IMG/VR virus record: IMGVR_UViG_3300026512_000056
Coordinates: 1 to 25,249 of that record
Reading direction: 5' to 3' (one strand)
DNA length: 25,249 nt
DNA from: a virus
Part shown: positions 1 to 24,343 of the stretch, one piece after another
Numbering within the stretch: the stretch's first letter is position 1
How the letters are laid out: every line of letters starts with the position of its first letter
Made by a program: the position numbers and the translations under genes
Notes under the pieces: generated by a model
The model's database searches: none
Seen by the model: the letters and a program-made list of their open reading frames with translations, nothing else
Told to the model about the DNA's origin: nothing

Positions 1-549
1 TATAGGGTTCATAACTAACCCCATACTAACTGGTTTATTTAGTCTTAAATAAACATCATTAGATACATTTTTTTCTATTGTTTTCAAGAATTTTCTATAT
101 ATGTTTAATGAACCATTAACATCTGCAAGATGGTCTGAAAGTTCTTCAGTACCGGTATCAGTAGGATTTAATGCTGTCACTATCATCATATCATCTGGTA
201 TAGCATAATTGGCATTTACTTTTTTCTCCAGCATAAGACTTCTGATTGAGTTCATAACTCTTTTTGAAGCTCTTGTTATTTCATCAAGAAATAAAATATG
301 AGTATATGAGCTTCCTGGTATTGTTATGCTAGGATCATACTGATTCATAATTTTCGTCCAAAGAGGTGGAGCAGTAAATTTTGTTTGAAGCACACCATTT
401 TCATCCTTATTAGGGGTTGTCAAGCCCACAACATCTTCAAATTTAGCATAGGCATTTTTATCTATTGATTTAGTGGATTGTCCTTTTGCTTTTTCCTCTA
501 AAACACTACTAAGCAATTCTGAGAATTTTAAAATACTATCATTTTTCAT
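1..549 (-). CDS. MoxR-like AAA+ ATPase, 3'-truncated by the window edge, no P-loop visible
   Basis: The first 183 residues are visible; the C terminus lies beyond base 1. Residues 85-90 (ILFLDE, followed by ITRA) form a Walker B motif of MoxR type, and residues 123-129 (IVTALNP) look like sensor 1. Before them EDVVGL (38-43) and TAPPLW (59-64) match the usual MoxR order of DxxG and a proline-rich strand. In that family a Walker A loop lies about 36 residues before the DxxGL element, but here the ATG is at that point and nothing resembling GxxGxGK[ST] precedes it; GQSTKS at 23-28 is at best degenerate. An exact TATAAATA lies 18 bases upstream, so late expression is likely. MoxR proteins act as chaperone-like remodelers, often with VWA partners; the role here is unknown. 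The family call is fairly sure, the activity is not. Confidence 0.65.
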   Translation of the reverse strand, partial: MKNDSILKFSELLSSVLEEKAKGQSTKSIDKNAYAKFEDVVGLTTPNKDENGVLQTKFTAPPLWTKIMNQYDPSITIPGSSYTHILFLDEITRASKRVMNSIRSLMLEKKVNANYAIPDDMMIVTALNPTDTGTEELSDHLADVNGSLNIYRKFLKTIEKNVSNDVYLRLNKPVSMGLVMNPI

Positions 550-567
550 ATAAACTTCTTTTATTTT

Positions 568-575
568 TATTTATA
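568..575 (-). promoter_or_regulatory. T4-type late promoter TATAAATA
   Basis: An exact TATAAATA octamer on the minus strand, 18 bases before the ATG at 549 and overlapping the stop codon of the primase gene. In T4 this octamer is recognised by the gp55/gp33 late transcription machinery. Confidence 0.7.
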
Positions 576-1797
576 CTCTAATCATTTTTAATTTAAGGAT
601 TCCCATCATACCCTGATAAATATTATTTTTTATCATGTTTGCTATTTTTTCATATGGAACCTTGAGTTTTCTGAGGTCATTAGTGTCTTTGAATTTTTCT
701 GAACCCTCAGGCCATATAAAACATTTATACCCTCTTTGAAGATATTTCAGTGTTTCTTCATGTGCTTTTTGGTCACATCGTTGATTGTCAAGGCAGAAGA
801 TTGGTTCCTTTAATTCCTGAATCCTGTCATCCCCAAGATTGGCACCGAGTTGTGCAATGACATTGTCTAGGCCACTAGACAATGCATCATATATAGATTC
901 TGTAATATATACTGGTTTTTCCTTGTCAACATCATAAAAATTCCATGCTTTATATCCTGAATTTCCCGTAACCATATAAACAAAAAATCTTTTTTCCTTC
1001 CATGCTAATGCCTGAAAACCATACCATAGGTCTCCTTTTTTGAGTGGTATGATGATGTATTCTGATAGTGTTTGTGATGCTCCATTAAATTTTATTTTAT
1101 TCCCTTTAGGACTGTATCTCCAGTCAGACTGAACCTCAATCCCCCGATTCTCAATATACCCTGAAGGTCCACCAGGTCCTGAAGGCATATCAGTAAAGCC
1201 TGGTGGTTCGGTCACCAAAAACAGACCTTCATCATTTATTGGTGTTTTGGGCGCTTTTGGTGGTTGTGTAGATGACACAGAAGGAGCACCAAAATCCAAT
1301 CCAGAGGAAAATGACATAATCTCATCTTTTGTAAGGGCTTTCTCTTCGTGACCGTCATTGATATTGTCATTTTGAATGTCTATTTTTTGTGCAGGTTTTT
1401 GATCAAAATTTAACCCAGTGTCAAAAATCGGAATCTCATCCATTCCTTTCTCCTGATCAGGATAATGATCATTATCCTTGTTTTTGAAAATGCTCTTTAG
1501 GGTCTTCAGTCCAGCACCCCTTTTTTCATTGACATATAGAGAAAATTCGTTTGGGTGATTTTCTTTTAGGTAACCATAAAGGTTTGTAGAATATTCGCAA
1601 TTAAAGCATTTTACTGCAGCATTATCATATGAAGATTTGATGTAAAGATGTAATCGGTGTTTTCTCATCCAGGAACCACCCTCATGACATATTGGACAAC
1701 ATACGGAAATATCAGCTGGGCCAACATTACCTACAGTGTCATAAGGATGAACCATAAGCCAGTATTTTTTGTCAATCTCATCGAGATATTGTGCCAT
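571..1797 (-). CDS. DNA primase, T4 gp61-like (zinc ribbon + TOPRIM)
   Basis: Synthesises RNA primers at the replication fork with the replicative helicase. The N terminus has a zinc ribbon, Cys34-Pro-Ile-Cys37 paired with Cys64-Phe-Asn-Cys67, typical of DnaG/gp61 primases. After a Pro- and Asp-rich linker (about 110-200) comes the catalytic core; the TOPRIM motif begins at ITESIYDA near residue 300, with the metal-binding acidic motif FCLDNQRCD further on. At 408 aa it is longer than T4 gp61 (342 aa), mainly because of the linker. The ATG at 1797 is preceded by GGAG at good distance. It lies downstream of gp32 and RNase H in the same orientation, separated from them by a single opposite-strand gene. 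No helicase gene is in the window. Confidence 0.88.
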   Translation of the reverse strand: MAQYLDEIDKKYWLMVHPYDTVGNVGPADISVCCPICHEGGSWMRKHRLHLYIKSSYDNAAVKCFNCEYSTNLYGYLKENHPNEFSLYVNEKRGAGLKTLKSIFKNKDNDHYPDQEKGMDEIPIFDTGLNFDQKPAQKIDIQNDNINDGHEEKALTKDEIMSFSSGLDFGAPSVSSTQPPKAPKTPINDEGLFLVTEPPGFTDMPSGPGGPSGYIENRGIEVQSDWRYSPKGNKIKFNGASQTLSEYIIIPLKKGDLWYGFQALAWKEKRFFVYMVTGNSGYKAWNFYDVDKEKPVYITESIYDALSSGLDNVIAQLGANLGDDRIQELKEPIFCLDNQRCDQKAHEETLKYLQRGYKCFIWPEGSEKFKDTNDLRKLKVPYEKIANMIKNNIYQGMMGILKLKMIRV

Positions 1798-4471: not shown

Positions 4472-4498
4472 TCTTTTTATATATGGTATTATATAAAA
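4472..4498 (-). terminator. AT-rich hairpin at the 3' end of the HNH-like homing endonuclease gene
   Basis: CTTTTTATATA and TATATAAAAG form an imperfect stem (one bulged base) around GGTAT. It overlaps the stop codon at 4489 and lies just before the gp32 leader. It could limit read-through into gp32, but an all-AT stem is weak evidence. Confidence 0.3.
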
Positions 4499-5391
4499 GA
4501 TTTACTTAATAAATATTCTAAAGTAATGCTACATTTTGATGATTTTCTTATATTTTCTTTTGAATTGATGATTGAAAGATTATTAACTCCACCAGCAATA
4601 TATGAAGGAACATTATGTCTAAAACATTCCAATATCGAGAATTTGTGGTCCAAATGAGCACCTTCTTTTGTCCCAAGAACTCTTTTGATATTATTGGGAT
4701 TAATAAACTCCTTGTATTTCCTATAATTCTGCTCAGTAATTTTCCTAACAATCCTTTTATATAACCCCCAATCTGATAACTCTTCATCAGCTACCCATTT
4801 ACCATTTTTTATATTTGTTTCCCTCGTGGAAATAGAGTTCTTTCTAATAATTTCCTTATTCTGTAACACACAAGGAACACCATATTTCTCGATATTAGTT
4901 TTCTTTATTTTATCTTGTATTTCCTTATTTTGTAGTGTGCAAGGAACTCCATATTTTTGTATATTAGTTTCCCTTATCTTATCCCTAAATGCCTTTAAAG
5001 ATAAAATACAAGGCGCACCATATCTATCAATATTGGTGTTTTCTATATTTTTCACAATTTTTGCAATATCTTCCTTGCTCCTGTTGCTCCAAACCACCTT
5101 CATTGTTTTTGATGTATTGCCTGTCTCTTGCCTGGTTTTCCTTGATTTTTCAATAGTTTTTTTGCTACTTTTTTGACATTCTGGCGAACAAAATAATCTA
5201 AATCCTTTTGACCACGACTTAAGTTTTAATCTATTACCACACTCACAAACAGGATTTTTGACATCAAAATAAATACAATATAAAGCTTCATTGGTTTCAC
5301 GAAGCTTTTTGGTCTTATTGCCATCTAATCTCCCATCTTTTCTTAATAAATTATTTTTTATATATTCTTTTGTCATATTGCTCCACATCAT
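4489..5391 (-). CDS. putative homing endonuclease with tandem TN-x(3)-YG repeats and HNH-like C terminus
   Basis: A 300-aa free-standing nuclease-type gene. Residues about 48-74 hold two Cys pairs (CECGNRL and FCSPEC), a zinc ribbon. The middle has three near-identical ~23-aa repeats, each with TNI(D/Q/E)(R/K)YG(A/V)PC, a DNA-binding repeat common in phage homing endonucleases. The C terminus has HLDHKFSILECF, VPSYIAGGVNNLSII and KENIRKSS, the H-D-H / N / N pattern of HNH-like nucleases. It is placed directly upstream of gp32, a typical target neighbourhood for mobile endonucleases. The start could be either of two adjacent ATGs (5391 or 5388); no strong ribosome-binding site is visible. A TATAAATA promoter and an AT hairpin precede it. 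Confidence 0.75.
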   Translation of the reverse strand: MMWSNMTKEYIKNNLLRKDGRLDGNKTKKLRETNEALYCIYFDVKNPVCECGNRLKLKSWSKGFRLFCSPECQKSSKKTIEKSRKTRQETGNTSKTMKVVWSNRSKEDIAKIVKNIENTNIDRYGAPCILSLKAFRDKIRETNIQKYGVPCTLQNKEIQDKIKKTNIEKYGVPCVLQNKEIIRKNSISTRETNIKNGKWVADEELSDWGLYKRIVRKITEQNYRKYKEFINPNNIKRVLGTKEGAHLDHKFSILECFRHNVPSYIAGGVNNLSIINSKENIRKSSKCSITLEYLLSKSFI

Positions 5392-8207: not shown

Positions 8208-8702
8208 TTAATTAATAATCTTATTTTTATTTCTCTTTCTGCTCTTAGCCAGTTTTCTTCTTTCTGCTCTATTCATTCCTTTTACAAGTTTTCCTTTAAC
8301 ATTACAAACCATAGGAATGCCTGATTTTTTTGTTTTTTTGATTTTTTCTGCAAATTTTTTCTGACATTTTAATTTTTTCTTCATTGCCCTTTTGAATGCG
8401 GGTTTTCTTCTTTTCTTAGCGTCATCTTTTTTGGCTTTATTTGACATTCTTTCACCTAAATCTTTATCAAAATCGTCATCCCAGTCATAATTATCCCAAT
8501 CGAAATTATCAGGGTCAAAATCATCGTCATCAAACTCTCCATACTCTATGATTTCCATGACTAATTCAGTTATTTCCGCTATGTCATCGTCATCTAGGTC
8601 TTGTTCTTGTATAAGCTCAATTAAATCTTGTTTTGTCCAATCTTCATCATTATTTTCATAGTCTTGTGCCTTATCTTCAAGCATTTCTCTAAAACTTTTC
8701 AT
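8208..8702 (-). CDS. capsid-targeted acidic/basic bipartite protein, prohead-core-like
   Basis: Starts MKSFREMLEDKAQ, fitting the capsid-targeting pattern with a possible cut after MLE. Residues about 15-80 are extremely acidic (runs such as DDDDFDPDNFDWDN). From about residue 88 the chain turns strongly basic (KKRRKPAFKRAMKKKLKCQ to the C-terminal KSRKRNKNKIIN). Acidic prohead core proteins and basic DNA-packing internal proteins are both known in T4; this protein combines the two in 164 aa. It is coupled to the preceding 70-aa gene by TAATG, and GGAG lies upstream of the ATG. The head-core role is inferred. Confidence 0.6.
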   Translation of the reverse strand: MKSFREMLEDKAQDYENNDEDWTKQDLIELIQEQDLDDDDIAEITELVMEIIEYGEFDDDDFDPDNFDWDNYDWDDDFDKDLGERMSNKAKKDDAKKRRKPAFKRAMKKKLKCQKKFAEKIKKTKKSGIPMVCNVKGKLVKGMNRAERRKLAKSRKRNKNKIIN

Positions 8703-8914
8703 TATTTAACTCCTAATTCTTTTTTTATTATTTCTATAAATTCACTGTAGTTATGTGTTCCATACTCATCTTTAACAATTTTTGAGACAGATAAAGCAAA
8801 ATCTTTTATTGACATACTATCATCTATTTTTTCAATGCTTTTGTCTATCTCTATTGCTAACTTATCTGACTTTTTGCTTTCGTTAATATTAATAATTTCT
8901 CTAAATGTTTTCAT
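8702..8914 (-). CDS. small protein with T4-like capsid-targeting sequence, 70 aa
   Basis: The N terminus MKTFREIININESKK closely matches the T4 internal-protein leader MKTYQEFIAEA, with a prohead-protease type site (I-N-E followed by S). The rest is a short helical, charged protein with no recognised domain. An exact TATAAATA lies 22 bases before the ATG and GGAG at normal distance, so it is a late gene heading the pair 8914-8208. Prediction: it is packaged in the head and processed to about 57 aa. Confidence 0.65.
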   Translation of the reverse strand: MKTFREIININESKKSDKLAIEIDKSIEKIDDSMSIKDFALSVSKIVKDEYGTHNYSEFIEIIKKELGVK

Positions 8915-8935: not shown

Positions 8936-9658
8936 TTATTTATAATTGCAATTATCAAAATGGTACCTTTTCATACCAGAAGTTTTCCCTTCTTTATTAC
9001 AGTGAGGACAAGTAACTATTTCTTGTACCTTTCTTGGTTTATTCTTCATGTTATATTTTCCTCTTTTCCTACCTGTCATATATTCACTTAGTTTTTCCTT
9101 TGTAATCTCGGTGACCTTATGTCCAGTCAAAGAAATACTCAAATTCTTCTTGTGTTCTTCGGTTTTTATGTATTTTTTGCAAGATTTTGCTATTTTTTCC
9201 TTGGTCATCTCTGTTGGTTTGTAATTTTTTAATTTTTCTTTTCTTGATATTCTACCTTTTATTCTATTCTCACTAAATTCGTCTCTGTTTTTTGCTTTTA
9301 TCTTCATTTTTTCTTTCGCTTCTTGAGAGTGTGTCATTCCTTTTGTCCATCCATCTAAACCATTTTCAGAAATTAAATTAGCATATTCTTTTGATTCTAC
9401 TATATTATTTTCTTCACTAAATTTCAATGCCATTTCTTCAACTTCATCCAAATTATATATACCATACACTTTCATAGTGACATCATCTCCATGAACTCTT
9501 AGGTGATTTAGCCAATAAGTTCCTGACCCGTGGTAATATTTTTGTAAATCTTCTTGGGTAAAATATGTAGTCGTTTTGCCAAAATATTTAAGTCCTGTTT
9601 TGTTGTGAGTTGCTATATACAGACATACTTTGTCTTTTGTTTTTTGATTATTTTTCAT
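8936..9658 (-). CDS. GIY-YIG-type homing endonuclease with NUMOD3-like motifs
   Basis: A 240-aa free-standing endonuclease. The N terminus has LYIATHNKTGLKYFGKT, a variant GIY-YIG opening, followed by YHGSGTYWLNHLRVHG, then SEENNIVESKEYANLI and ENGLDG, the order seen in phage Seg/Mob-like GIY-YIG nucleases. The middle has repeated NUMOD3-like DNA-binding motifs (MTHSQEAKEKM; GHKVTEITKEKLS). The C terminus ends in a zinc finger, CPHC with a distal HFDNC. GGAT precedes the ATG. It sits between virion genes and next to a capsid-targeted gene with its own promoter, so it is probably a mobile insertion. The leader carries a strong hairpin and two late-type promoters. Confidence 0.75.
   Translation of the reverse strand: MKNNQKTKDKVCLYIATHNKTGLKYFGKTTTYFTQEDLQKYYHGSGTYWLNHLRVHGDDVTMKVYGIYNLDEVEEMALKFSEENNIVESKEYANLISENGLDGWTKGMTHSQEAKEKMKIKAKNRDEFSENRIKGRISRKEKLKNYKPTEMTKEKIAKSCKKYIKTEEHKKNLSISLTGHKVTEITKEKLSEYMTGRKRGKYNMKNKPRKVQEIVTCPHCNKEGKTSGMKRYHFDNCNYK
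8937..8944 (-). promoter_or_regulatory. TATAAATA late promoter
   Basis: Exact octamer, 22 bases before the ATG at 8914, overlapping the stop codon of the GIY-YIG gene. Spacing is identical to the promoters at 10745 and 23335. Confidence 0.75.
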
Positions 9659-9678
9659 GTAGTTATCCTATAAAAATA

Positions 9679-9686
9679 AATTTATA
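9679..9686 (-). promoter_or_regulatory. variant late promoter TATAAATT
   Basis: One mismatch to TATAAATA, 20 bases before the ATG at 9658, which is the spacing seen at the other late promoters. It lies downstream of the 9706-9755 hairpin, so transcripts from it would lack that hairpin. Confidence 0.4.
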
Positions 9687-9705
9687 AGAGTTTCGTCAGA
9701 CTTAA

Positions 9706-9755
9706 TTCTGTTATATACTATATCCTCTCGTCAGACTATATAGTATATAACAGAA
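9706..9755 (-). promoter_or_regulatory. perfect 18-bp hairpin in the leader of the GIY-YIG gene
   Basis: Arms 9706-9723 and 9738-9755 are perfect inverse complements (TTCTGTTATATACTATAT) around a 14-base loop. An outer 8-bp pair (9683-9690 with 9760-9767) encloses it. TCGTCAGACT occurs twice, once in the loop and once between the outer and inner arms (near 9693 and 9728). There is no U-run, so it may be an attenuator or processing site rather than a simple terminator. Confidence 0.6.
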
Positions 9756-9773
9756 AAACCTCTTATATACTAT

Positions 9774-9781
9774 TATTTATA
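9774..9781 (-). promoter_or_regulatory. TATAAATA late promoter upstream of the hairpin leader
   Basis: Exact octamer, immediately after the stop codon of the 9784-10440 gene on the minus strand and just before the 9706-9755 hairpin. RNA started here would carry the hairpin before reaching the endonuclease ATG at 9658. Confidence 0.5.
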
Positions 9782-9783
9782 AG

Positions 9784-10440
9784 TTAAAAAACACCTTGTT
9801 GTAACATTTTTAACTTAGCAGTTAAAACTTCTCTTCTGAAAATCGGTTCTCCGTTTCCATCTAATTCTCTCACTTCGATACTTAATACATATGTTGTGCC
9901 AGCTGTCAGTTGTTGAGATTGTAATGGCATTATTTGAAAGATAAAAAATGAATCTGCTGATGTTTTTATGGTAGCACCGATATTAAAATCATGAGTAAAA
10001 TTCCCATTTGCATCTGTCTTAATTCTCATCTCTCTTGAAAAATCAACAAAAACACCTTTTAGCGTGATTGTAATGTACCTATCTGCCTCAGGAACTTCGA
10101 TGGCATTTCCATCTGCATCTGTGCTATCATGATACATTCTACCGCTTACTGTACATATTTCATTATCTGCACCAGAAATAACATCATCATTGAAAACAAC
10201 TTTTTCTAATCCTGTGCTCTCAAATATTTTATATGTTTTTCTAAAATCTTCTCCTATTAGAGAATCAGAATTATAGATATTTTCATTCTTGGTCAAGGTT
10301 CCTTCTAAAATAGGAGTCCCGCCAAGAGTATCTGAAACTACCCAAGAACCCTCCCAATTTGATGGTAAGTTTGAGACCTGTTTTGACGAAAATTCCCAAA
10401 TATCTGAGGAATCTCCTTGTATCAATAAAATTTCTTCCAT
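9784..10440 (-). CDS. putative virion structural protein, beta-rich, 218 aa
   Basis: Not assigned to a named family. It looks like a two-domain beta protein. Residues 1-60 (LLIQGDSSDIWEFS, SNWEGSWVVSDTLGG) resemble a small beta-barrel. Residues about 90-215 look Ig-like, ending LTAGTTYVLSIEV, then FRREVLTAKLKMLQQGVF, a strand pattern common in phage baseplate or tail accessory proteins that describe per-axis properties. No signal peptide or membrane segment. GGAG precedes the ATG. It is 12 bases from the capsid-targeted 89-aa gene and probably in the same late unit (promoter at 10745). Confidence 0.5.
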   Translation of the reverse strand: MEEILLIQGDSSDIWEFSSKQVSNLPSNWEGSWVVSDTLGGTPILEGTLTKNENIYNSDSLIGEDFRKTYKIFESTGLEKVVFNDDVISGADNEICTVSGRMYHDSTDADGNAIEVPEADRYITITLKGVFVDFSREMRIKTDANGNFTHDFNIGATIKTSADSFFIFQIMPLQSQQLTAGTTYVLSIEVRELDGNGEPIFRREVLTAKLKMLQQGVF

Positions 10441-10452
10441 TGCTTAATCTCC

Positions 10453-10722
10453 TTATGCCTCTATGACATTATATTTTAGTAAGATTTTCGCTATTTGATT
10501 GTTTAATCTTCTATCGGATATTTCAGGAATATGAAAGAATTTCATATCTTTGGTTACCACTACATCATCTTGTTTTAGTACTGCAGCTATTTCCATAACA
10601 GCTTCTGCATCATAGAAATAAGTAGCAGCCTTTCCATTCCATTCTTTTGCTATATAAGAGTCGATTTTATCATCTGACATTTTCTTGATAGCTTCCGTCA
10701 TATATTCACTAAATGTTTTCAT
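10453..10722 (-). CDS. small protein with T4-like capsid-targeting sequence, 89 aa
   Basis: Begins MKTFSEYMTEAIKKMSDDK; MKTF-S-E-Y-M-T-E followed by A is the closest match in the window to the T4 leader MKTYQEFIAEA, with a predicted cut after MTE. The remaining ~79 residues form a small mixed alpha/beta domain (AEAVMEIAAVLKQDDVVV, then ISDRRLNNQIAKILL) of unknown function. An exact TATAAATA lies 22 bases before the ATG and GAGGA serves as ribosome-binding site. Likely a packaged internal head protein. Confidence 0.65.
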   Translation of the reverse strand: MKTFSEYMTEAIKKMSDDKIDSYIAKEWNGKAATYFYDAEAVMEIAAVLKQDDVVVTKDMKFFHIPEISDRRLNNQIAKILLKYNVIEA

Positions 10723-12232: not shown

Positions 12233-12790
12233 CTATTCTATTTTTTCTAAATTACTTATATTATATTTTTCAAATAAAATAACTTCATTTTGTTTTTTCA
12301 AATCCTTTATAGTATCATAAAAAACATCAAAAGTCATATCACCAGGACCATCATATTTTCCTATATAATACTTCTTTTTACCTTGAAATAATTTCCCAAA
12401 GACATTAAAATCAAAACCTTCTGTATTATCTATCTCTGCCCAATAAAAATCTTTATTTTTTGTATTAGTATATTGTCCTATCATGCCTTTTACATCTTCT
12501 AGGTATTCTCCTGTATATTTCTTCTTTGTTGTTGATGTTAAATCTCTATACTTATATGATTTTTCATCTTTTAATGAGGTAACTCTATACAGTTTTTTGA
12601 ATTTTTTTATCACCTTTAATTTTTGAAGTTCTTTCTTATATTTCCTCAAAAACACAAGAAGATTGTCTCTTGATTCATCATCATTATATAAAACATATCC
12701 TGATAATTCTTCTACAAATCCTTTTAATTCAGGTATTAAATCCTCAACATTTTCTGTGTTTTCGCTTATAAAGTCCTTAAATTTAATCAT
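12233..12790 (-). CDS. capsid-targeted protein, 185 aa, weakly ADP-ribosyltransferase-like
   Basis: The N terminus MIKFKDFISENTEN fits the capsid-targeting pattern (cut after ISE). The start at 12790 overlaps the stop of the preceding gene as ATGA and has GGGGAG upstream; an ATG five codons earlier lies inside that site and is less likely. After a helical segment (18-65) come LYRVTS (67-72), LTSTTK (84-89), FYWAEI (115-120) and, near the C terminus, QNEVILF (167-173). The order Arg, Ser/Thr motif, Q-x-E followed by hydrophobic strands recalls R-S-E class ADP-ribosyltransferases such as T4 Alt, also a packaged head protein. Spacing is not standard, so that reading is weak. Confidence 0.55.
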   Translation of the reverse strand: MIKFKDFISENTENVEDLIPELKGFVEELSGYVLYNDDESRDNLLVFLRKYKKELQKLKVIKKFKKLYRVTSLKDEKSYKYRDLTSTTKKKYTGEYLEDVKGMIGQYTNTKNKDFYWAEIDNTEGFDFNVFGKLFQGKKKYYIGKYDGPGDMTFDVFYDTIKDLKKQNEVILFEKYNISNLEKIE

Positions 12791-14028
12791 TCTATTACTC
12801 CCCATTTTATTTTAAAATCTCTCCCATTAGGTTTTATCCAAAAACCACATATTTCATACTTTATTAAATCATCAGCCAAATCATTATCATCATCTATTTG
12901 TACAAGATTGAAATTGTGAACTGAAGTTCCTTTAGTTACACCTGGGATATAGTTATACATTGTTCCTTCTAAATCTCCAACAGCTGTTGTATTGATAACT
13001 TTTATATACTCTGTGGCATTGGTACCATATACATCTTCTACCTGGTCTATTATAACATTTTTTATTGTACTTCTTACAGGATTATTTTTATTATTTATTA
13101 TCTTATGTTTATCTTTATCCCAATACCCGTTTACCATTGGAATAGCACAAAGTTGCCATGTATTTCCCTCCACTTCTATTTCCCCATAAGCCTGTATTGT
13201 CTGATCTTCTGCCACAGTGTCGTCGCATTTTTGGAATGCTATATTATATTTTCTTACAGCATTACTACTATCTCCATCTGTATCAGTGGCTATTTCTATT
13301 AATTTATACCTACCTTCATTATTATAAGTCCAACTAAAAACAGTATTGTTATCAAGTGAAGTTTGCAATGACCAATCCTGATTATCTTCATCATATACAA
13401 CAGTTCTCACTTCATTCCCATTTTCATCTTCTGATATCTCTATATATGAGTTCAAATCTAAATATAATTCCCAATCAATTCTAAGGTTTTGAGGATTATC
13501 TTCTTGGTCAGTAGAACAACTTGTATATATGGCAGTTGGTACAGTAAAACATGAAATATTTTCTTCATTACATGCTTCAGGTGGAATATTTGTTTTCTCT
13601 ATATTTTTTGAAATGCTATTGGTTTTTATTTCCCATCCTGTGAAGTATCTTACAGTTTGAATTACTGTCTGAAGTCTTGGTACACTTAAAACTTGTCTTA
13701 CTGTCTCATCTTCTTGGTGATTTAATGAAGTTCCATCTTCAGAAAAATCATAGTCAACACCATCCTCTTGCACAATATCATAAGGGTCATTTATAGTGGG
13801 TATAATTTCTGTGTTATCAATGATTGTAGGTTCAGTGGGATTAACATTAAAATCTGGCTGGATTGTATACTCTTTCCATTCTATATCTTTAGTGAGAACA
13901 TAATCATATAACTTTCCAGTTCCGTCGTCTATTGTGATTGTTTGTTGAATTGTTTTTCCTGATTCAGCACAATTTCCTATGTGCTGAAAGGAGTCTGTGT
14001 ATGTAGAAGATTCATAAATAGTTTCCAT
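12787..14028 (-). CDS. virion structural protein with PKD-like and shared C-terminal domain, 413 aa
   Basis: The N-terminal ~170 residues include a Pro/Asp-rich stretch and RQVLSVPRLQTVIQTVRYF. Residues about 175-280 form a PKD/Ig-like module (IDWELYLDLNSYIEIS, FSWTYNNEGRYKLIEIATD). The last ~130 residues share a domain with the 266-aa protein at 15759: IIDQVEDVYGTNA here against FIDQIEDVYGVSA there, each preceded by a Trp-Asp-Lys-Asp segment and followed by a similar run ending in an acidic strand. Probably a fibre or adhesin attached to the tail or head surface. GGAG and a TATAAATA 19 bases upstream support the ATG at 14028. Coupled by ATGA to the capsid-targeted gene downstream. Confidence 0.6.
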   Translation of the reverse strand: METIYESSTYTDSFQHIGNCAESGKTIQQTITIDDGTGKLYDYVLTKDIEWKEYTIQPDFNVNPTEPTIIDNTEIIPTINDPYDIVQEDGVDYDFSEDGTSLNHQEDETVRQVLSVPRLQTVIQTVRYFTGWEIKTNSISKNIEKTNIPPEACNEENISCFTVPTAIYTSCSTDQEDNPQNLRIDWELYLDLNSYIEISEDENGNEVRTVVYDEDNQDWSLQTSLDNNTVFSWTYNNEGRYKLIEIATDTDGDSSNAVRKYNIAFQKCDDTVAEDQTIQAYGEIEVEGNTWQLCAIPMVNGYWDKDKHKIINNKNNPVRSTIKNVIIDQVEDVYGTNATEYIKVINTTAVGDLEGTMYNYIPGVTKGTSVHNFNLVQIDDDNDLADDLIKYEICGFWIKPNGRDFKIKWGVIE

Positions 14029-14060: not shown

Positions 14061-14492
14061 TTAAGAAATGCTTTTAATCCAAGCCATTGCTTCGTTTTTA
14101 TTATCAAAGAAGTTTACAATATCACTTTTTTCTCGCGTAATAATCATATACATTTTCCCATTAGGCTTAATATTCCCACCCCATAGGTCTTGTTTTCCTG
14201 ATCCCCGAGTTGCTGGATATGTTGGTATTTCAAAAAGTTTAACTTTTTGATTTTTTGTTTGTTTCATAGGCTTAGTCACTTCTGACCATTTAACCAATTT
14301 CCTAACAATGCCATCATAATGTTCAGTATCTGAACTGTCAGAACTAAAATATCTTTTCAAATCTGGAAGTTGCGCTGTCATTCCTGAACCTTCAGCATAT
14401 GTTATCCATAATTCTTTGTAATCTGTATTATATAGTACATATTCTTTTGTTGCCTCATTTATCTCATTTATAAATTCACTAAATGTTATCAT
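14061..14492 (-). CDS. capsid-targeted hypothetical protein, 143 aa
   Basis: Begins MITFSEFINEINEATKEY, matching the capsid-targeting pattern with a likely cut after INE. The mature part has a beta-rich domain (YVLYNTDYKELWITYAEG) and a second segment ending GKMYMIITREKSDIVNFF, with no recognised enzyme motif. GAGGG precedes the ATG. The upstream TATAATTATAAAAG is only a weak late-promoter match, so expression may come from the capsid gene promoter at 15475. A short TTAAC/GTTAA hairpin at 14525-14539 lies in the gap before it. Predicted internal head protein. Confidence 0.6.
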   Translation of the reverse strand: MITFSEFINEINEATKEYVLYNTDYKELWITYAEGSGMTAQLPDLKRYFSSDSSDTEHYDGIVRKLVKWSEVTKPMKQTKNQKVKLFEIPTYPATRGSGKQDLWGGNIKPNGKMYMIITREKSDIVNFFDNKNEAMAWIKSIS

Positions 14493-23467: not shown

Positions 23468-24343
23468 CTAACTAATAAATTCTATTTGTTTAATAACATT
23501 ATAAGTATTATTAGTAGGATATCCTAAAGGGTTGCAAATCATTCTAATTCCATCCATATTAAAGTCTAAAGATTGATGGGTATGACCAAAAATATGCACA
23601 CTACATCCACTTTTTTTAAGAATCTCCTCATTATCAGTATAATAAAAAATGTTCTCTTTTTGATTAAGATATTCTCCGGCCATTCCTTCACTTTCATCTG
23701 GTTCATGCAAAGCAATATGAGTAATAAAAACATCACAACCTTCTTCTGCAATTTTAATAAGCTTAGCTTTTTCTAAATCATAGAATTTTACCGGGTCCCA
23801 ATTGTTACTTGGACGAGAATAACTTTGGTACATTCCATAACTCTGATAACTTACACCATTATAAATAAGATTACTATCATTCATTACTCTATTCCAAGTA
23901 TCCAATTCCCATTCAGTTGTTAGATTATACCACGAACCAGTTCCGCCAAATTTTACACCATTAATTTCAACAACATTTCCATCTAAATAATGCGCTTCTA
24001 ACTCTTCACAAATTTCTTTTAACTCTACTAAACGATTTTCTGATTTTGAGTCATATTTTGAAATCTGCCCATTTGATACAAGGTACATATCATGGTTACC
24101 CCATGTTAATATAATATTTTTATAATATTTTTTAAGTTCCAAAAGAAGCTCTTTTGTTTGATTGTTATAATGACACAAATCTCCAGCAATGATCAGAATC
24201 TCTCCTGGCTTATAATCTTTATCGGCAGGCATTAAGATATTTTCTATGAAATTCTGCAACTGAATGCTGAACTTCAGTTTTGAAATGTCCTTTTCTTTTA
24301 TCCAGAAATCTATGTGAATGTCAGATATAAAATCAATCTTCAT
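23468..24343 (-). CDS. calcineurin-like metallophosphoesterase, 291 aa
   Basis: Motifs in order: FISDIHIDFW at 5-14, IIAGDLCHYNN near 51-61, LTWGNHDMYL near 80-89, VFITHIALHEPDE near 206-218, and IFGHTHQSLD near 251-260, the complete two-metal set of the family. More like the general phosphodiesterase branch (DxH, GD, GNHD, GHTH) than the PP-type enzyme at 21555, so the two genes are not recent duplicates. It may act on nucleic acid ends or cyclic nucleotides; substrate unknown. Starts 2 bases after the membrane-protein gene's stop. Confidence 0.82.
   Translation of the reverse strand: MKIDFISDIHIDFWIKEKDISKLKFSIQLQNFIENILMPADKDYKPGEILIIAGDLCHYNNQTKELLLELKKYYKNIILTWGNHDMYLVSNGQISKYDSKSENRLVELKEICEELEAHYLDGNVVEINGVKFGGTGSWYNLTTEWELDTWNRVMNDSNLIYNGVSYQSYGMYQSYSRPSNNWDPVKFYDLEKAKLIKIAEEGCDVFITHIALHEPDESEGMAGEYLNQKENIFYYTDNEEILKKSGCSVHIFGHTHQSLDFNMDGIRMICNPLGYPTNNTYNVIKQIEFIS

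What the first reader, a model, noticed from the sequence alone, without database searches (positions are those of the whole stretch)
1..549. MoxR-like AAA+ protein that begins where its P-loop should be
The Walker B (ILFLDE) and sensor 1 (TALNP) regions are intact, but the chain starts at the point where family members carry Walker A, and the preceding bases belong to primase in another frame. The N terminus (LKFSELLSSVLEE) even resembles, loosely, the capsid-targeting leader, and the gene has its own TATAAATA promoter. It may be a non-ATPase derivative, a partner of a second subunit, or a gene remodelled by N-terminal replacement.
Basis: partly seen in the sequence, partly recalled or inferred. 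Interest (0 to 1): 0.6.

Follow-up and report, generated by a model that had tools for sequence, protein, structure and literature searches.

The report
Three-gene chimera, not P-loop-less MoxR
The "headless" phage ATPase is the scrambled remnant of a known phage protein-remodelling operon: the start of one gene, a middle slice of the ATPase and the tail of a mobile-element gene joined in one reading frame at the broken end of an assembled sequence, so it is most likely a gene ruin (or assembly error) rather than a new enzyme.

Summary
In detail: ORF 1-549(-) has an AAA+ Walker B and sensor 1 but no Walker A, and it runs off the contig end. Relatives explain why. The ORF has three pieces. (1) aa 1 to ~39 are the 5' end of the metallopeptidase-type gene that follows primase in two close phages; DNA identity stops at window 429-431 against both. 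(2) aa ~38 to ~142 are the second AAA domain (D2) of a ~970-aa double-AAA MoxR. Intact relatives (L105, 56%; L107, 50%) carry a normal P-loop about 35 residues upstream of the joining point. (3) aa ~142-183 are the C-terminal tail of a TnpB (RuvC-III motif ADVNGSLNIYRKF). Both joins fall on GATGTT. Best reading: a deletion scar of a phage MoxR-vWA/metallopeptidase operon with a TnpB tail, the locus being decayed or lost in two further relatives. A chimeric read or assembly at the contig end cannot be excluded without reads. "Non-ATPase derivative" and "second-subunit partner" have no support. "N-terminal replacement" is right in kind: the new N terminus is the neighbouring gene's. The parent system is known from jumbo phages. 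Interest is low; the side finding is a tandem-AAA phage MoxR locus with intein-like insertions.

The parts
1..549 (-). Chimeric ORF, 183 codons, ATG at 549, open at the contig end
568..575 (-). TATAAATA, T4-late-promoter-like octamer overlapping the primase stop; also present at this place in L085 (11241-11248), before the metallopeptidase-type gene
430..549 (-). Piece 1: leader (aa 1 to ~40) of the metallopeptidase-type gene (DUF2201_N/vWA partner of MoxR)
   Evidence: 58-59% aa identity to L085 11268+ and L041 5957+; DNA homology (83% / 74%) continuous with primase and ending at 431/429
430..438 (-). Junction 1, GAAGATGTT: shared word of the metallopeptidase-type gene (TTTGAAGATGTTGAT in L041) and MoxR D2 (TCAGAAGATGTAATC in L105)
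118..438 (-). Piece 2: fragment of the second AAA domain (D2) of a double-AAA MoxR, starting after the P-loop and ending after sensor 1
   Evidence: 56% to L105, 50% to L107; E 7.6e-31; alignments
280..297 (-). Walker B ILFLDE
   Evidence: invariant FLDE
163..177 (-). Sensor-1-like TALNP (GAMNP in L105/L107)
118..126 (-). Junction 2, GCAGATGTT: D2 DHxxDV and TnpB ADVNGS share Asp-Val here
1..126 (-). Piece 3: C-terminal tail of a TnpB (IS605 OrfB family), RuvC-III motif ADVNGSLNIYRKF; contig ends inside it
   Evidence: 56% over 41 aa to a TnpB tail in L044/L091; 43% to Lak-A1 TnpB; TnpB HMM 14.1 bits against at most 4.1 in 2000 shuffles
571..1797 (-). T4 gp61-type primase, upstream neighbour, used to anchor synteny

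Best explanation
The ORF is a deletion scar in a T4-like phage, probably a pseudogene. The ancestor had, after primase, an operon for a metallopeptidase-vWA protein and a two-AAA-domain MoxR, a chaperone-type pair. Illegitimate recombination at a short shared word (GAAGATGT) fused codon ~38-40 of the metallopeptidase-type gene to MoxR D2 just downstream of its P-loop, removing the rest of the metallopeptidase-vWA gene(s), MoxR D1 and the D2 P-loop. A second join at GATGTT, to the tail of an inserted tnpB, removed the rest of MoxR. The product would keep the metallopeptidase start site and promoter-like TATAAATA, but would lack Walker A, the lid and the partner protein. It should therefore neither bind nor hydrolyse ATP in the MoxR manner. 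Shown: the three origins and the joining points. Inferred: the order of events, that the joins exist in real phage DNA, and loss of function.
For: Piece 1: synteny after primase and DNA identity of 74-83% that stops at nearly the same base (431/429) against two relatives; per-15-nt identity drops from 0.73-0.93 to 0.13-0.40. Piece 2: intact homologues L105 and L107 with D1 and D2 P-loops (GDPGTGKT; GKPGLGKT), and a neighbouring DUF2201_N metallopeptidase-vWA gene. Piece 3: TnpB tail. L085 has primase > metallopeptidase part > homing-endonuclease-like ORF > vWA part > LRR-like ORF > MoxR D1 on one strand, so a simple deletion could give the first join. Decay of the locus elsewhere: L086 has frame-broken MoxR D1 and intein relics directly after primase; L044 has no such gene after primase.
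Against: Both joins lie in the last ~430 bases of a metagenomic contig that ends inside a mobile-element gene, which is where chimeras are commonest. Neither join was found in any other record. Both joins keep the frame (about 1 in 9 by chance), which a random deletion would not need.
Confidence: 0.64

Rival explanations
1. Sequencing or assembly chimera: the last ~430 bases of the contig were joined wrongly, and the real phage has an intact metallopeptidase-vWA/MoxR operon after primase.
For: Two unrelated joins in 430 bases at a contig end, the end lying inside a tnpB; no second record with either join. Close relatives L085 and L041 have the metallopeptidase gene continuing.
Against: The shared words at the joins are only about 6-9 bases, shorter than k-mers normally used by assemblers, so reads crossing the joins should have existed. 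Independent decay at this locus in L086 and absence in L044 show that such losses happen. No intact copy of the removed genes is in the bin, but the bin may hold only part of the phage.
Confidence: 0.28
2. A functional P-loop-less MoxR derivative, made as a chimeric protein and perhaps acting as a dominant partner or scaffold.
For: The frame is open through both joins and the start region with TATAAATA is kept. Walker B and sensor 1 are well conserved.
Against: P-loop, lid, D1 and the vWA partner are all missing. The C terminus is a TnpB tail. No homologous fusion was found in viral contigs, phages or 290 related genomes. The AlphaFold model is of very low confidence (mean pLDDT 40.5, 3-row alignment), so it says nothing either way.
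Confidence: 0.06
3. A split gene whose P-loop half lies elsewhere (trans-splicing, intein or homing-type gene fragmentation).
For: Homing-endonuclease-like ORFs are in the window and L085. MoxR D1 in L085/L086 shows intein-like insertions.
Against: The 5' piece is a different gene, not a linker or intein. No P-loop-bearing D2 fragment in the bin. No intein or intron sequence at either join.
Confidence: 0.02

Closest known systems
MoxR AAA+ / vWA pair with the vWA protein fused to an N-terminal metallopeptidase, group 2.2 jumbo phages (PMC7824862)
   Same: The intact relatives L105/L107 have exactly this pair: MoxR plus DUF2201_N-vWA. The window holds pieces of both genes.
   Different: The window has only fragments joined in one ORF. 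The relatives' MoxR is a double-AAA protein of ~970 aa; I did not check whether the paper's examples are.
phrog_1297 phage 'ATPase' / MoxR of Cronobacter phage GAP31 and relatives
   Same: Walker B, sensor 1 and the DVVG motif align.
   Different: GAP31 and the others have the P-loop and a full C-terminal domain.
TnpB (IS605 OrfB; Lak-A1, csAssE-Sib, Quidividi, phage G)
   Same: C-terminal RuvC-III motif and tail.
   Different: Only the last ~42 residues are present; RuvC-I/II and the zinc-finger region are absent.

Membership tests
MoxR AAA+ ATPase | Walker A GxxxxGK[ST] | tested here: not met
   absent from the 183-aa ORF and no room upstream; present in L105/L107 D1 and D2
MoxR AAA+ ATPase | Walker B hhhhDE | tested here: met
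   ILFLDE aa 85-90
MoxR AAA+ ATPase | Sensor 1 Asn after beta-4 | tested here: met
   TALNP, invariant A and N
MoxR AAA+ ATPase | Arg finger, sensor 2 and helical lid | tested here: not met
   similarity to D2 weakens after DHLADV and a TnpB tail takes over to the contig end
MoxR-vWA(metallopeptidase) phage module | vWA partner gene with metallopeptidase domain | tested here: not met
   only the N-terminal leader is left; no further copy in the bin, but the bin may be an incomplete sample of the phage
MoxR-vWA(metallopeptidase) phage module | ATP-dependent chaperone activity in virion assembly | not testable with these tools
   proposed in PMC7824862; not tested here
TnpB (IS605 OrfB) | RuvC-III motif [AS]D[IV]NG.xNI.RK | tested here: met
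   ADVNGSLNIYRKF; HMM 14.1 bits against a maximum of 4.1 in 2000 shuffles
TnpB (IS605 OrfB) | Full nuclease with RuvC-I, RuvC-II and TNB domain | tested here: not met
   only ~42 residues, joined to AAA sequence; Pfam finds nothing in aa 135-183

The most novel reading that the evidence does not exclude
A translated chimeric protein (metallopeptidase leader, P-loop-less MoxR D2 core, TnpB tail) that the phage keeps as a non-ATPase regulator or poison subunit of a MoxR complex.
Probability: 0.05. Interest if true: 0.55.

Novelty: new member of a known kind. Interest (0 to 1): 0.24.

Why it matters
It removes a false lead (a P-loop-less MoxR class) and shows how an annotation pipeline would call this 'MoxR ATPase' from its Walker B alone. 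It also shows that a little-studied phage module, a double-AAA MoxR with a metallopeptidase-vWA partner, lies after primase in one group of T4-like phages (IMG/VR contigs) and is prone to loss, intein-like insertion and mobile-element damage, so it may be dispensable for some of these phages.

Tried and rejected
A degenerate Walker A 'AKGQSTKS' at the N terminus (suggested by the phrog_1297 and MAFFT alignments): rejected because the same residues (KGQFTKSIDKN) belong to the metallopeptidase-type gene in L085 and L041. Clamp-loader-type AAA gene after primase in Campylobacter phage WX1: unrelated. MoxR genes in related MAGs: only weak, canonical MoxRs. Same junctions or tails in other genomes and viral contigs: none. 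TnpB copies in the same bin: none found. Rfam on 1-700: only one sub-threshold match, taken as chance. Structure prediction: mean pLDDT 40.5, not interpretable. L085's MoxR as direct donor of the AAA piece: rejected, because it is D1 (Walker B region ~40% alike) and the window piece is D2.

Full report
Observation. The window is the entire contig C489 of a fragmented MAG (493 contigs, 2.43 Mb) and carries T4-like phage genes: gp32, RNase H, gp61-type primase, gp23-like. ORF 1-549(-) starts at ATG 549 and runs off the contig. It has an AAA+ core with ILFLDE and TALNP, hits AAA_5 above its Pfam cut-off and phrog_1297, and has no GxxxxGK[ST]. Aligned with phage MoxRs (GAP31, Slickus01, Roseovarius Plymouth podovirus 1, PA5oct) it lacks the P-loop region. 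The primase stop codon lies 21 nt upstream in the same frame, so no P-loop can be added at the 5' side.

Piece 1. Close relatives of the phage were found in IMG/VR through gp32 and primase: L085/L039 (primase 86%), L041 (71%), L086 (63%). In L085 and L041 the gene after primase begins with the same leader as the window ORF (window MKNDSILKFSELLSSVLEEKAKGQSTKSIDKNAYAKFEDV; L041 MNKEILKFSELLSEQFAKSIDKNAKANFEDV). It then continues as a different protein that contains HEIYH. That protein is 45% identical to the N-terminal part of L105's DUF2201_N metallopeptidase-vWA protein. The vWA half is a separate ORF in L085, with a homing-endonuclease-like ORF between the two halves (T5orf172/MUG113-like hits, below Pfam cut-offs). 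BLASTN of the window runs continuously from primase into this leader and stops at window 431 against L085 and 429 against L041. In 15-base steps identity falls from 0.73-0.93 to 0.13-0.40 at that point.

Piece 2. A scan with the AAA core found L104-L107, at 50-56% identity. L105 2396-5284 and L107 2399-5329 are ~970-aa proteins with two AAA domains. D1 has LLLTGDPG[TV]GKT and D2 has GKPGLGKT or GLPGIGKT. The window core equals D2 from EDVIGLTTP onward (E = 7.6e-31 for the L105 protein against the bin, and no second place). The D2 P-loop lies about 35 residues upstream of that point in both relatives. L085's own MoxR ORF is D1 (45% to L105 D1) and is cut by the contig end.

Piece 3. The last ~42 residues match a fragment in L044/L091 (56%) and the C terminus of a 401-aa protein of Lak-A1 phage. 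The Lak-A1 protein is TnpB (PF01385, 1.1e-24; PF07282, 1.5e-8); homologues are annotated as TnpB or IS605 OrfB. A TnpB HMM scores the window ORF at 14.1 bits over aa 142-176, while the best of 2000 tail shuffles reached 4.1. The conserved motif is the RuvC-III stretch ADVNGSLNIYRKF.

Joins. Join 1 lies on GAAGATGTT (430-438) and join 2 on GCAGATGTT (118-126). At both places the two parents encode Asp-Val (or Asp-Ile), and the shared word is about 6-9 bases. Both joins keep the frame, about 1 in 9 by chance.

Interpretation. The simplest account is an operon deletion (metallopeptidase leader to MoxR D2; gene order as in L085) followed or preceded by damage from a tnpB element. The locus is unstable elsewhere. 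L086 carries frame-broken MoxR D1 sequence (TDSKRIQNLF) with an intein-like block right after primase, and L044 has nothing of the module after its primase. A chimeric read or assembly at the contig end remains a serious rival, because I have no reads and found neither join in another record. No result supports a functional P-loop-less MoxR.

Known context. A MoxR-vWA pair with a metallopeptidase fused to the vWA protein was reported in group 2.2 jumbo phages and proposed to act in virion assembly (PMC7824862). The TATAAATA at 568-575 matches the T4 late-promoter consensus (own knowledge). It is mildly enriched in the window (15 against 8.1 expected, 2 of 100 shuffles as high) and is at the same place in L085, so it would have driven the metallopeptidase-type gene.

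Noticed in passing
L085 15752-16639; L086 11207-11636: Intein-like sequences in the MoxR D1 gene at two different points: L085 after ...TILNGYLGD|CWSYDQ (judged by eye), L086 before |TDSKRIQNLF (block at 11207-11491 hits Pfam Intein_splicing at 6.6e-4, below its cut-off).
   Followed up: partly
L105 2396-7253; L107 73-5329: Double-AAA MoxR (~970 aa) beside a DUF2201_N metallopeptidase-vWA protein, in opposite gene orders in the two contigs.
   Followed up: partly
L085 11268-15015: The metallopeptidase-vWA gene is split into two ORFs with a homing-endonuclease-like ORF (T5orf172/MUG113-like, below cut-offs) between them.
   Followed up: partly
L091 9040-9355 (L044 contig): TnpB C-terminal relic next to a decayed metallophosphoesterase; the window homologue at 23468-24343 is intact.
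   Followed up: partly
window, e.g. 9774, 10745, 14048, 15475, 15728: TATAAATA octamers (T4-late-promoter-like) close upstream of several structural-type genes; 15 copies against 8.1 expected.
   Followed up: partly
window 8208-8914, 10453-10722, 12233-12805, 14061-14492: Several small ORFs begin with MK[TS]FRE / MKTFSEY / MITFSEF-type leaders, like T4 capsid-targeting leaders.
   Followed up: no
window 4489-5391: DUF7487 family protein (5.4e-13) with repeated NIxKYGVPC-type units, next to gp32; L044 has a similar HNH-type ORF (9011-9904) next to its gp32.
   Followed up: no
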